From positions 1-21,428 of IMG/VR virus record IMGVR_UViG_3300009163_000209: DNA of 21,428 bases; one strand, written 5' to 3'. Shown here one piece after another: positions 12,066-16,604 of this stretch. The stretch comes from a virus. Both the position numbers and the translations under genes were made by a program. Under the pieces are notes generated by a model that was not told where the DNA came from, made no database searches, and was given only the letters and a program-made list of their open reading frames with translations. Numbering within the stretch: the stretch's first letter is position 1; the number at the start of each line of letters is the position of its first letter.

Positions 12066-13259
12066 TTAAAGGCCAGAGAAAATTATATCTCCCGTCACTA
12101 AAGCATTAATCTCAATAGTAATGTTGTAATCGTCTAACTGCGTTATTTCGGGGCTGGTAATGGACTTAATCTCCATAGTTATATTAATATCATCAATAGT
12201 ATCTATGTCAACTGTCTCTGAATCCTCAATGCTCATTGTAACTGGCACCCTGCTTGATATTTCTATAATACCCTGTATCGGGACTGGGGCAACATAAAAG
12301 AGCTTAATAAGGGCACCCAGGGCCGTTACAGCGCCTTGTAGACGCTTAGTCGCTGCCTTTCGAATAACCCCATATGGAGAAGAAATTCCCTCTATGTGAT
12401 TGGAGGCTTTTTTGCGAATTAAGCCAGATGAAGATATTGACGCTATAAAGTTTCGGACTATTGATTTTCTTGCAACCACAGAACCGCCCGATGAGACAGA
12501 AGCAATAAATCTTCTCCTTGTAGCCTTCCGAAGAAGCGCCGAAGAAGATATGGCCCCAGCAACGCTTCTTCCAAATCGTTTGGCTGTCGTACCAGATGAA
12601 CCAAGAGTTCCAGCAATCAGCCTATGCGCAGTAACCCCGGAGGAAACTAATCCACTGGAAGATATGTGAGATATGAACACGGCGACAAATCTAGTAACTA
12701 AGTGAAGGCTAGATCCTGGCGATATACTCCCAGCAAAAAACCTACGAGAGGCTTTCTTAACAACAGAAGATGAAGCAATAGAGGCAGCAATATTTTTAGA
12801 TGACTTCTTGCTAATTGCCGCTGAAGAGGATATGGAAGATATGAGCCTGCGAGATACTCGGCCAACCTTGCTTCCAGACGAAGATATAGAAGATTGCAAA
12901 CTTTTTGATAAATATTTAACTAAGCTAGATGTTGAAGTAATTGCTCCAGATATTAGCCTACTTATGTATTTGCCAACAAGTCCCGAAGAATTAATGCTGC
13001 CAGCAAGAGTGCGTACAAACAATCTTGATGAGCTTAATGTAGCGCTTGAAGAAATGTTAGCATTTATAGGTTTAGATATATATTTATTAACAACTGCATT
13101 AGATGTTATATATGCCAAAAATGTTCTTTTAATAGATTGTTTGCTTCCATTGGAACCACTAGACGATAAAGACCCGGACAAGGACAGCGAAAGAACCCCT
13201 ACAGGAGGGTTTCTGTTCAATCTAAAGATAGTCGCAGTTGCTCTGCGGGACCTAGCCAC
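12066..13259 (-). CDS. Basic Ser-rich tandem-repeat protein with acidic C-terminal tail (397 aa)
   Basis: The start is GTG, sharing one base with the upstream TAG (TAGTG) and lacking a ribosome site, so it depends on coupling to the 510-residue gene. Residues about 24-322 consist of around 16 imperfect repeats of 17-22 residues with the consensus R-h-h-A-G-S-I-S-S-S-G-h-h-x-K-x-x-R (h hydrophobic), for example RTLAGSINSSGLVGKYIS at 83-100 and RNFIASISSSGLIRKKAS at 269-286. Residues 1-289 contain no Asp or Glu but many Lys and Arg. Residues 344-383 then become strongly acidic, with two related DD-x-NIT-x-EI units. The regular spacing suggests a beta-solenoid or fibrous rod. Similar short S/T-G-S-L repeats occur in environmental phage proteins, as I recall, but I know no function. 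Confidence 0.75.
   Translation of the reverse strand: MARSRRATATIFRLNRNPPVGVLSLSLSGSLSSSGSNGSKQSIKRTFLAYITSNAVVNKYISKPINANISSSATLSSSRLFVRTLAGSINSSGLVGKYISRLISGAITSTSSLVKYLSKSLQSSISSSGSKVGRVSRRLISSISSSAAISKKSSKNIAASIASSSVVKKASRRFFAGSISPGSSLHLVTRFVAVFISHISSSGLVSSGVTAHRLIAGTLGSSGTTAKRFGRSVAGAISSSALLRKATRRRFIASVSSGGSVVARKSIVRNFIASISSSGLIRKKASNHIEGISSPYGVIRKAATKRLQGAVTALGALIKLFYVAPVPIQGIIEISSRVPVTMSIEDSETVDIDTIDDINITMEIKSITSPEITQLDDYNITIEINALVTGDIIFSGL
12320..13190 (-). repeat. Tandem protein repeats of 17-22 codons, about 16 copies
   Basis: This marks the part of the 397-residue gene that encodes the repeat array (residues about 24-313). The repeats are clear at protein level (AGSISSSG-like cores separated by Lys/Arg-rich linkers) but diverged at DNA level, which points to old duplications under selection rather than recent slippage. 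Confidence 0.75.
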
Positions 13260-14791
13260 TACCAGTTGGCCGATCTACTAATACCCTGCATCGCTGGTTT
13301 AATATTAGAAACAGATATATCATTTATTGACAGACTTTTTATATCACCATAATATGCAGGAGTAGTTGAAATTAATGCTCCCCTTCTGGAGGGAGTAATT
13401 ACTCCACTACAGTCTCCAGATGAATATTTAGATAATGCAGTAGATGTATAGGTTACTGTCTCTGCAGGCGCTCCACCAACAGAGGCTGGAATTTTTGCTG
13501 TAATTTTTATAGTATATAATCCACTACCGGATGGCGACGTTTCTACGCTGACATCCCAAACATCATATGCCGCTCTATCTATAAGATTGGCTCCCTGAGC
13601 AGACCCAATTAAAGTGGTTACTCCATTTTCAACCTTATATAAACCAACTAAAGCATAGGTTGAATTAGCAACATTAGCATTTTTATTAGAATAAACAAAT
13701 CCTATCGATGCATAATAATAATTAAGAAGTTTGCCAGCAGACATTTCTCCAAAAAAATAAATATATGTTGTTGAAGCAGAGGATGCTCCACCAGCAGTTT
13801 TAGCAGGGGCAGCGGGGGCTACCATAGAATATTGATAAGTTCCTACCGGAGATACATCTGCCGTAGTAGCACCTGTCGTAGATACTAACGGGACATTAAC
13901 CATACCACCATACCAATGAGAATAGACTCTACAGGTTATGTATGTCCACGCTGCAGCTCCAGTTGTATAGGTAAGAGCTGTGCTGCTTCCAGTTGTGGTA
14001 AAATCTGAAATAGAACCTACTGCATTTGCTAAAGTAAGATTGGAGCCAGTTAAGCCAGTTCCACTATAAGTGCCTCCAGTAGAAGTATTATTTTTAAGCA
14101 CAAAGCCCATATTAATGCCACCGAGAGTAGAAGAATCCACTGCTGTAGTTGCAAATGTAGCAGTTGTTGAGCTTACATTGGTGCCAGTCGCAAAAATGCC
14201 GGTGCAGAGGATTGCCTCTGTAGAACTTACCGCATTGGTTCCACTCATTGAATAGCAGATAGCAGCCACATTAGACTGAGAAACAGAGAAAGTAGCTACA
14301 ATGCTAGCAGAAGTTGGAGCAGCGGAAGTTGGGGCGGCAGCAACATACATACTAAGTCTTCTAACTCCGTTGCCAAAAGTGCCAACTTGATTCCATGTCA
14401 TATTAGCGCCAGTAACGCTAGTGGGCGCTACAGTATTATTTGCAGTAGAGCCATTAGAATAAATAAATAAGACAGTAACCCGATTAGCAGGAGGGGCAGA
14501 TGCTAGCGGGATAGTAAATGTCGTAGTAGACGCTGCCGTTGTAGCATTAGGTGAAGAGCTAAGCATATTCACACCATAGACTGGTGTTCCAGATTTTAAG
14601 CCAATCATTTGGCCGCTGGTGAATTCAACAACATCGCCACTGACTAGCGCAGAAATAGTTTCAGTTAATTTATTTGCATCTCCAAAAGCATAAACAGATG
14701 CAGTAGGAACTCCAGAAGCAGTAGGCCATGAATCAGCCGCACCGGCGGTAGCAATATTAAACTGTTTATCTAAAGAAGTTTTATTAGACAA
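13259..14791 (-). CDS. Large adhesin-like surface protein, candidate head fibre (510 aa)
   Basis: The best start is TTG at 14791, overlapping the previous gene by eight bases; no ATG is available until residue 62 and there is no clear ribosome site, so translation is probably coupled. Composition is dominated by Thr, Ser, Ala and Gly, with almost no charged residues. Residues about 75-290 look like a jelly-roll or Ig-type adhesion domain (RVTVLFIYSNGSTANN, RRLSMYVAAAP, AAICYSMSGTNAV, TYITCRVYSHWYGG). Residues about 335-480 look like a second beta domain resembling carbohydrate-binding sandwiches (STTYIYFFGEMSAG, YASIGFVYSNKN, ALVGLYKVENG). Such proteins commonly contact cell-surface polymers. 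Binding function is inferred from style, not from a recognised family. Confidence 0.75.
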   Translation of the reverse strand: MSNKTSLDKQFNIATAGAADSWPTASGVPTASVYAFGDANKLTETISALVSGDVVEFTSGQMIGLKSGTPVYGVNMLSSSPNATTAASTTTFTIPLASAPPANRVTVLFIYSNGSTANNTVAPTSVTGANMTWNQVGTFGNGVRRLSMYVAAAPTSAAPTSASIVATFSVSQSNVAAICYSMSGTNAVSSTEAILCTGIFATGTNVSSTTATFATTAVDSSTLGGINMGFVLKNNTSTGGTYSGTGLTGSNLTLANAVGSISDFTTTGSSTALTYTTGAAAWTYITCRVYSHWYGGMVNVPLVSTTGATTADVSPVGTYQYSMVAPAAPAKTAGGASSASTTYIYFFGEMSAGKLLNYYYASIGFVYSNKNANVANSTYALVGLYKVENGVTTLIGSAQGANLIDRAAYDVWDVSVETSPSGSGLYTIKITAKIPASVGGAPAETVTYTSTALSKYSSGDCSGVITPSRRGALISTTPAYYGDIKSLSINDISVSNIKPAMQGISRSANW

Positions 14792-15443
14792 GGACGCAAT
14801 CCAATGCTGTATTTATATTAAATACTTCAAAAGCTTTTAGTGCTTTAATTAAATCGGACTCTGGACTGGCCAGCTCAAGTTGATGAAAGAATGTTTCAAA
14901 GTTAGTCATATTCCAGAATGGTCCATCAATTAATATATCTGGAAGGATTGCGTTGCCTCCATTCATGATGTCGTTCATCCACGAAACAATAGATAGATGA
15001 ATGGGGTCAATAAAATATAAAGAATTAATATAATCTTGAATATTGTTTTCAGAAAAAGTAGCGTCTATTTCATGTAAAAAATCTACATAAAATGTTCTAG
15101 TTTCAGCAAGATGTGCAATAAAAGTATCATAGCTGCGCTCCCATGAGCAACTAATAAAAGGCCAATTGTTAAAAGACAGCAATATAGTATAAGCATAGAT
15201 ATCGTCCATCTCAAAACTGCAGATAGCTACATGCTTATTGCAAGCGACAAGAGTAAACTGTTTAAATTGAGTTAAATCAATTTCAGTATAGGTAGGAGCG
15301 CCTTCAAAATCATTGCAAGTAAAGTTGCTAGCAAGATATAATGCCATGCCATCTACATTTGGATTGTATAGCATATCTGCTCTAAATGGATCTTCAGTAG
15401 TTCCCGAGCCTAAATATCTAACATAAAAATAGATTAAAGACAT
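14784..15443 (-). CDS. Protein of unknown function, acidic and aromatic-rich (219 aa)
   Basis: I do not recognise this protein. It begins two bases after the upstream TAG with CAGGAG as ribosome site. The first 110 residues look like a beta sandwich (LIYFYVRYLGSGTTEDPFRAD, FTLVACNKHVAICSFEMDDIYAY) and the rest is helical, rich in Asp, Asn, Phe and Ile. Cys occurs five times, unusual beside its Cys-poor neighbours. There is no signal peptide or membrane helix. Its end overlaps the next gene by eight bases. Lying between a decoration-like protein and an adhesin-like protein, it might be an assembly partner or chaperone for the surface proteins, but this is inference. Confidence 0.7.
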   Translation of the reverse strand: MSLIYFYVRYLGSGTTEDPFRADMLYNPNVDGMALYLASNFTCNDFEGAPTYTEIDLTQFKQFTLVACNKHVAICSFEMDDIYAYTILLSFNNWPFISCSWERSYDTFIAHLAETRTFYVDFLHEIDATFSENNIQDYINSLYFIDPIHLSIVSWMNDIMNGGNAILPDILIDGPFWNMTNFETFFHQLELASPESDLIKALKAFEVFNINTALDCVLV

Positions 15444-15896: not shown

Positions 15897-16604
15897 TTAT
15901 CCTCCAGAGTTAAGCGTTAAATCATAGGTAGTCTCAAGTGAATCTCCACTGCTTAAGTTAATAGCAGAGAATACTGAACGGTCTAAAAGAGTCCCGCCAG
16001 CAACAGCCGCTTGAGTAAAAATACCATGCTCAGTAATAGCAGCGCTTCCATCTAAAGTATTGGTAGCAACAGTACGAAATACGTTAGCCGTGGGGTTAGA
16101 CTTAGTTCCCGTAGGGCGCACGTTGTCTGTGGCATAAGCAGTAGTAAGCTCAGAGCCAAGAGCAGTATTGGCAGCAGACTCTGCGCCAGTTCCAATCCCA
16201 ATACCATGAAAGTTAAAGTTTCCAGCACTAGCGTTGCCATTAAGTCCAGTAGCGATAGCCGCTACCCCGGCATCAGTCACAACACGCATGGAAATAATAC
16301 CAAGGTCTACAACCTCACCATCTCTGACGACAGTCCCCCAAAGCATCCCAAAAAATGTGGGAATGTTGTTGTCATAAGCCATCTTAGCTTTCTTGTAGCC
16401 ACGATAGATATTTTCCCAGTTCATAGTACGATAGTTGCGTACCTCACGGCTAAGCCGAGAATGTGGCATAGCATATTCATTAATTAACTCGTTTAAATCC
16501 GGCGAACCCTCGCTAGCGCGAATTACTTGGATACCAAGATTTCCAGCAGCTGCAAGTGAATGCGGACTATTTTGCTCTGACTTTTTAAGTCCAAAAACAG
16601 ACAT
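15897..16604 (-). CDS. Virion surface-type structural protein with beta-rich C-terminal domain (235 aa)
   Basis: A strong AGGAGG ribosome site sits six bases before ATG. Residues 1-95 are mixed and partly helical (LNELINEYAMPHSRLSREVRNYRTMNW...). From about 110 the text becomes a Gly/Ala/Thr-rich beta domain with the pattern FHGIGIGTGAESAANTALG, TAYATDNVRPTGTK, EHGIFTQAAVAGGTLLDRSVF and DSLETTYDLTL. I recall this domain from many phage structural cassettes, where it is annotated as a virion or tail-fibre-like protein. The position just after the capsid gene favours a head-surface or head-fibre role. The C-terminal Gly-Gly codons also form the ribosome site of the next gene. Confidence 0.7.
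   Translation of the reverse strand: MSVFGLKKSEQNSPHSLAAAGNLGIQVIRASEGSPDLNELINEYAMPHSRLSREVRNYRTMNWENIYRGYKKAKMAYDNNIPTFFGMLWGTVVRDGEVVDLGIISMRVVTDAGVAAIATGLNGNASAGNFNFHGIGIGTGAESAANTALGSELTTAYATDNVRPTGTKSNPTANVFRTVATNTLDGSAAITEHGIFTQAAVAGGTLLDRSVFSAINLSSGDSLETTYDLTLNSGG

What the first reader, a model, noticed from the sequence alone, without database searches (positions are those of the whole stretch)
12066..13259. Repeat protein with 289 residues free of Asp and Glu and an acidic tail
About 16 repeats of 17-22 residues (AGSISSSG cores with Lys/Arg linkers) form a strongly positive array, and acidic residues appear only from residue 290, concentrated at 344-383 in two DD-x-NIT-x-EI units. 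Such charge separation suggests self-association, binding to the negative capsid surface, or binding to an anionic cell-wall polymer, nucleic acid or membrane. I know no described function for this kind of repeat.
Basis: partly seen in the sequence, partly recalled or inferred. Interest (0 to 1): 0.62.

Follow-up and report, generated by a model that had tools for sequence, protein, structure and literature searches.

The report
Repeat-built shaft of phage neck fibre
An uncultured phage encodes a stiff, repeat-built rod that most likely holds a fast-changing adhesin out from the neck between its head and tail; the rod's odd charge pattern is a local trait, while the repeat, the gene neighbours and the fixed tail end recur in very different phages.

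Summary
In detail: window 12066-13259 (minus strand) encodes 397 residues, the first 289 without Asp or Glu, with 16 repeats spaced 18 or 20 residues apart (25-322) and an acidic tail. The charge explanation does not hold. Relatives keep the repeat, but its net charge per 18 residues runs from about +3 to -1.8. What recurs is the gene's place: directly upstream of a small beta-sandwich protein (p98, phrog_18294) and the head-tail adaptor, next to a fast-changing partner gene. In other phages the repeats are fused to p98, p98 is fused to the adaptor, and the repeats are fused to a large N-terminal region occupying the partner's slot. In two independent pairs of close relatives the partner and the N-terminal part of the repeats differ strongly, while the C-terminal end, p98 and adaptor are 94-100% identical; in one pair the boundary is a sharp recombination point inside the repeats. 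I infer the shaft of a neck-anchored adhesion fibre, C-terminus at the neck, N-terminus towards a variable adhesin. It resembles the lactococcal neck passage structure in layout but not in sequence, polarity or shaft type. AlphaFold2 favours a beta-solenoid at modest confidence. No catalogued family or isolated phage matched.

The parts
12066..13259 (-). p397, the repeat protein (GTG start, 397 aa)
   Evidence: ORF and translation; orthologue L003 of the same length at 76% identity
12294..13187 (-). 16 repeats, residues 25-322, spacing 18 or 20: K/R1, hydrophobic 3, small 5, I/V 7, small 11, hydrophobic 13, K/R15
   Evidence: profile tiling against shuffles; all-beta AlphaFold2 model
12069..12263 (-). 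acidic C-terminal tail, residues 333-397, short I/V-rich strand-like units; proposed anchor
   Evidence: window against L003: dN/dS 0.027 for codons 341-397, 100% identity over residues 361-397; short form of the motif in L007 and L009
13257..13261 (-). TAGTG overlap of the p510 stop with the p397 start (TAATG in L003, L009, L091): suggests translational coupling
   Evidence: sequences around the starts
13259..14791 (-). p510, fast-changing partner, proposed adhesin; conserved C-terminus QGxxRSAxW
   Evidence: 46% identity to its L003 orthologue while MCP, p149, p235, p98 and p295 are 94-97%; 50% against 98-99% in the L009/L091 pair
14784..15443 (-). p219, unknown; changes together with p510
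   Evidence: 82% in the window/L003 pair, 56% in L009/L091
11744..12040 (-). p98, small beta-sandwich (phrog_18294; weak MG2 likeness), proposed link between shaft and adaptor
   Evidence: family scans; fused to repeats in L096/L097 and to the adaptor in L102
10856..11743 (-). p295, head-to-tail adaptor
   Evidence: BLASTP E 3e-14 to Moab gp32, annotated head-to-tail adaptor

Best explanation
p397 is the shaft of an adhesion fibre fixed to the phage neck. Its 16 beta repeats stack into a rod (beta-solenoid, or a trimeric beta fibre). The conserved C-terminal tail docks, directly or through the p98 beta-sandwich, on the head-to-tail adaptor. The N-terminal end points outward and carries p510, made in coupled amounts through the overlapping stop and start, which contacts the cell surface. 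Shown: repeats, gene order, fusions in relatives, and the identity gradient with a recombination point inside the repeats. Inferred: presence in the virion, docking on p98/adaptor, the rod shape, and p510 as the adhesin.
For: (1) Place: between MCP and adaptor in the same order in L003, L009, L091, L007/L089 and L019. (2) In loci recruited only by p98, the ORF upstream of (or containing) p98 is a periodic repeat protein in about 11 of 14 dereplicated groups, against 45 of 488 (9%) of ORFs of 200 aa or more with period z at least 4; binomial about 1e-9, with dereplication done by eye, L125 left out of the 14, and L009 counted by profile score because its z is only 2.8. (3) Fusions: repeats+p98 in L096 and L097; p98+adaptor in L102 (phrog_442, E 3e-15) and Streptomyces phage KimJongPhill gp16; repeats with a 525-aa N-terminal region in L007/L089. 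(4) Gradient: window/L003 identity along p397 runs 62, 50, 75, 88, 77, 88, 100% from N to C; p510 46%; p98 94%, p295 95%. L009/L091: p505 50%, first 90 residues of the shaft 44-56%, next 45 at 78%, then 98-100%, p97 99%, p295 99%, with nucleotide identity stepping from about 0.6 to 1.0 inside the repeats. (5) Upstream partners in some relatives carry glycan-binding-type folds: Laminin_G_3 in L096, legume-lectin type in Faust gp30, DUF2341 in L102 and L096. (6) Repeat profile and AlphaFold2 both point to two strands per repeat.
Against: No virion or structure data exist for this phage. p510 itself matches no lectin family, and the L007 N-terminal region shows no detectable similarity to p510. 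p98 does not match BppU_N, the fold known at lactococcal necks. The structure model is modest: pLDDT 64 for the repeats, 42 for the whole protein. The gradient also reflects recombination, since dS falls along the gene as well as dN (0.92 to 0.25).
Confidence: 0.55

Rival explanations
1. A capsid-surface head fibre: p397, p510 and p219 decorate the icosahedral shell and the neighbouring p98 is a decoration or anchoring protein of the capsid, not of the neck.
For: The genes follow the MCP directly; related phages of the same MCP family carry collagen-like GPQGPQG proteins in the region around the MCP.
Against: p98 is fused to the adaptor in L102, KimJongPhill and, by my reading of the sequence, L125, which favours the neck.
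Confidence: 0.22
2. The basic array itself is the working part and binds an anionic target (teichoic-type polymer, DNA, membrane or capsid surface), with the acidic tail shielding it by self-association.
For: Net charge about +2.5 per repeat, an acid-free run of 289 residues and a -12 tail; also basic in L003, L096 and L097.
Against: Array charge in the same position ranges from +3 to -1.8 per 18 residues and is near zero in L125; the basic positions are mainly single K/R at repeat positions 1 and 15, fitting solvent-facing turn residues.
Confidence: 0.1
3. A trimeric beta-structured tail or baseplate fibre whose gene merely sits in the head module.
For: A repeat with mostly even spacings and a tolerant loop is also what a triple beta-spiral shaft would show; tail fibres show the same variable-end pattern.
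Against: Fixed linkage and fusion to p98 and adaptor, with the tail genes further downstream.
Confidence: 0.08
4. Non-structural: an assembly chaperone or internal DNA-condensing protein.
For: Highly basic, low-complexity sequence.
Against: Coupled to and exchanged together with p510, fused to large N-terminal regions in L007, L096 and L097; acidic homologues or analogues such as L100 could not condense DNA.
Confidence: 0.05

Closest known systems
Neck passage structure (NPS) of lactococcal 936 and P335 (TP901-1) siphophages (PMC6669499, PMC10747895)
   Same: A beta-sandwich anchor beside portal/adaptor, an elongated shaft, and a variable outer part; conserved anchor and diverse distal region; adhesion role proposed.
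   Different: NPS is one polypeptide anchored by its N-terminal BppU-type domain with a helical coiled-coil shaft; here the anchor end is C-terminal, the shaft is beta repeats, the parts are usually separate genes, and p98 does not match BppU_N.
Collar whiskers and spikes (T4 wac/fibritin, XM1 gp40; compared in PMC10491603)
   Same: Fibrous elements on a collar around the neck.
   Different: Described as helical, triple coiled-coil collar proteins; no sequence relation seen here and a beta-repeat shaft is proposed.
Ca2+-dependent beta-helical antifreeze domain of an Antarctic bacterium (PDB 3p4g)
   Same: Best structural match of the repeat model: Z 21.2, rmsd 2.4 over 237 residues.
   Different: 9% identity, Foldseek E 0.8 only; Ca2+ binding in such repeats needs acidic residues, which are absent here.
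Collagen-like proteins of related phages (e.g. L027, Moab gp31)
   Same: Repeat-built proteins in the region around the MCP, some with short I/V-rich acidic strand units and a small beta-sandwich protein encoded nearby.
   Different: Gly-x-y repeats; strand units at the N-terminus instead of the C-terminus; relation is by analogy only.

Membership tests
Lactococcal-type neck passage structure | BppU N-terminal beta-sandwich as anchor | tested here: inconclusive
   None of 12 p98 members matched BppU_N in Pfam at E 0.1; five match MG2 (best 3e-6) and all match phrog_18294. Profile comparison with the LtfC/BppU-like A6 set gives probability 66%.
Lactococcal-type neck passage structure | Encoded in the head module with the adaptor as attachment site | tested here: inconclusive
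   Encoding is met: order MCP...p510-p397-p98-adaptor; p98 fused to the adaptor in L102 and KimJongPhill. Physical attachment not testable here.
Lactococcal-type neck passage structure | Trimeric helical coiled-coil shaft | tested here: not met
   Repeat pattern and both AlphaFold2 models are all-beta in the repeat region.
Lactococcal-type neck passage structure | Carbohydrate-binding tip | tested here: inconclusive
   p510 matches nothing in Pfam or PHROGs; upstream partners of some relatives match Laminin_G_3 or legume-lectin families.
Beta-solenoid proteins | Short tandem repeats stacking as coils of two or more strands | tested here: inconclusive
   Repeat model pLDDT 64, pTM 0.56; VIA-align Z 21 to 3p4g, Foldseek E 0.8.
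Ca2+-dependent (RTX-like) beta-helix | Conserved Asp in the turns | tested here: not met
   One D/E in the 298-residue repeat region; D/E at most 9% at any repeat position in the relatives tiled.
Left-handed beta-helix (hexapeptide) | Aliphatic residue every sixth position | tested here: not met
   Hydrophobic at 3, 7 and 13; position 1 is K/R in 77% of repeats.
Triple beta-spiral fibre shaft | Trimeric shaft with Gly/Pro turn and alternating hydrophobic strands | not testable with these tools
   Hydrophobic 3, 7, 13 and small residue 11 are compatible; no multimer prediction available.
phrog_18294 (p98 only) | Sequence match to the family profile | tested here: met
   E 2.5e-11 for the window p98; all 12 members of A3 match.

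The most novel reading that the evidence does not exclude
A previously undescribed, widespread class of phage neck appendage: beta-repeat shafts of interchangeable repeat type (15-22 residues), anchored at the C-terminus through the p98 domain on the adaptor, used by siphophages and at least one phage with a contractile-tail sheath gene, with the repeat array itself serving as the recombination site at which adhesins are swapped.
Probability: 0.35. Interest if true: 0.7.

Novelty: new variant of a known kind. Interest (0 to 1): 0.5.

Why it matters
Neck appendages are poorly known, and here a host-contact candidate can be recognised in uncultured phages from gene order: a repeat protein directly upstream of a p98 domain and an adaptor. 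The two close pairs of relatives show which part is exchanged and which part is fixed, so the adhesin end of many unannotated metagenomic phages becomes predictable and testable.

Tried and rejected
No match for p397 in Pfam, PHROGs (best E 0.28), PDB sequences, or INPHARED phages by tblastn, nor for L019, L097, L103 or L125 repeat proteins in INPHARED; BLAST's low-complexity filter may hide distant repeats. Foldseek gave no hit at E 0.001 or better in PDB or BFVD. A single-repeat HMM from the window and L003 was too short to find far relatives, so a tiling profile was used. I first read L007 as a fusion of p510 with the shaft; BLASTP and profile comparison show no similarity of its N-terminal region to p510, so only 'same slot' is claimed. 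p98 against the adaptor N-terminal domain: probability 45%, not claimed as homology. No Rfam match and no tRNA in the window. The long stop-free antisense frame opposite the gene (184 codons) is not conserved in length (103 aa ORF in L003) and is taken as a by-product of composition.

Full report
What is there. Window 12066-13259, minus strand, is an intact 397-codon gene. Residues 1-289 contain no Asp or Glu. Tiling with a repeat profile gives 16 repeats from residue 25 to 322, spaced 18 or 20 residues. Over 116 repeats from the window and relatives the pattern is K/R at 1 (77%), hydrophobic at 3 (91%), small at 5 (95%), hydrophobic at 7 (78%), small at 11 (91%), hydrophobic at 13 (84%), K/R at 15 (69%). 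In a subset of five proteins, of 20 spacings other than 18, 15 are even, so most keep the in/out alternation of a strand. The acidic tail has a conserved core (IEI...ED...I), once in L007/L009 and extended in the window and L019.

Surroundings. The window is a 21.4 kb IMG/VR fragment holding a head-tail module on the minus strand. Its MCP is about 54% identical to that of Streptomyces phages of the Stanwilliamsviridae. Order after the MCP: a small ORF, p235 (phrog_5417), p149, p219, p510, p397, p98, p295 (adaptor), then tail genes. p510 stop and p397 start overlap as TAGTG; L003, L009 and L091 have TAATG at the same place, which suggests translational coupling.

Relatives. Two contigs carry a 76%-identical p397. 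Searching with the MCP and with p98 instead gave syntenic loci whose repeat protein differs: 263 aa in L009/L091/L092, 488 aa in L019, 875 aa with a 525-aa N-terminal region in L007/L089. The repeat profile learned from these sequences scores 154-314 in the window, L003, L007, L009, L091 and L019, 148 in L103, and 44 and 58 in L096 and L097, with shuffles at most 14.5; since the profile was retrained on these proteins, the scores are partly circular, but the shuffles were scored with the same profile. More distant loci recruited by p98 alone have other repeat types in the same slot: 20 residues in L098/L101/L104, 21 in L100, 15 in L102, 22 in L125. Whether those are homologous or repeatedly invented I cannot say.

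Linkage. Counting by eye, about 11 of 14 p98 groups have a repeat protein upstream or fused, where 9% would be expected from other ORFs. Physical linkage is suggested by three kinds of fusion: repeats to p98 (L096, L097), p98 to adaptor (L102 by PHROGs; KimJongPhill by annotation; L125 by reading), and repeats to an N-terminal region in p510's place (L007/L089).

Which end is fixed. Between the window and L003, MCP, p149, p235, p98 and p295 are 94-97% identical, p219 82%, p510 46%, and p397 rises from 50-62% at the N-terminus to 100% at the C-terminus. L009 and L091 repeat this independently: p147 98%, p217 56%, p505 50%, the shaft 44-78% over its first 135 residues and 98-100% after, p97 99%, p295 99%; nucleotide identity steps from about 0.6 to 1.0 within the repeats. 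Recombination has therefore replaced the distal part and kept the C-terminal part with p98 and the adaptor. In the window/L003 pair dS also falls along the gene (0.92 to 0.25), so the gradient is not selection alone; the tail's dN/dS of 0.027 against 0.44 for the rest does indicate constraint there.

Structure. Full-length AlphaFold2 with six sequences: pLDDT 42. Repeat region with ten aligned repeat regions: pLDDT 64, pTM 0.56, all beta, about two strands per repeat. VIA-align ranks the beta-helical antifreeze domain 3p4g first (Z 21.2, rmsd 2.4, 237 residues), then HMW1 and EtpA secretion domains, while Foldseek finds nothing significant. I take this as support for a beta rod, not for any particular family; a trimeric fibre is not excluded.

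Charge. I therefore read the K/R at positions 1 and 15 as turn residues of this lineage's repeat rather than as the function.

Comparison with what is known. The layout matches the neck passage structure of lactococcal phages, where a BppU-type domain rings the neck, a shaft follows, and carbohydrate-binding modules cap it (PMC6669499, PMC10747895). Differences: C-terminal anchor, beta shaft, separate genes, and a p98 that Pfam does not call BppU_N. It works like an NPS, but I do not file it as one.

Limits. Everything is from sequence. Presence in virions, attachment at the neck, and p510 as adhesin are inferences. p510's fold is unknown.

Noticed in passing
window 13259-14791: p510 is nearly charge-free (3.9% D+E, 4.3% K+R) and ends in a motif QGxxRSAxW kept in L003, L009 and L091 although the rest has diverged; possibly its docking end on the shaft.
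   Followed up: partly
window 15897-16604: p235 (phrog_5417, unknown function) is 96% identical to its L003 orthologue and present in the close relatives; a strongly conserved capsid-module protein without a role.
   Followed up: no
   Followed up: no
L027 367-3531, L004 18633-20135: Collagen-like GPQGPQG proteins of related phages begin with short I/V-rich strand units (e.g. NNIILKEDNNITLV) that look like the window's acidic C-terminal tail, with a small beta-sandwich protein encoded nearby.
   Followed up: partly
L028 11140-13173: A regulator-like ORF and a 430-aa ORF that reads like a C5 DNA methyltransferase are inserted in the head module just after the MCP.
   Followed up: no
L043 4657-6351, L034 11546-13219, L049 4192-6156: Proteins near the MCP with long Thr-rich (TTTTSTTTT) stretches, mucin-like linkers in related phages.
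   Followed up: no
L096 4202-7267, L097 4679-7276: In the repeat+p98 proteins a segment reading like a fibronectin type III domain (VIERKDGxGEW...YYYRxKRVS) is inserted between the N-terminal region and the main repeat array.
   Followed up: no
L126 (NZ_FMWL01000012.1): Acidaminobacter hydrogenoformans DSM 2784 carries the L096 prophage region (100% over 10.2 kb), the only named host found for this arrangement.
   Followed up: partly
window 12808-13281, plus strand: Long antisense open frame (157 aa ORF, 184 stop-free codons) opposite the repeats; shorter in L003, so likely compositional.
   Followed up: partly
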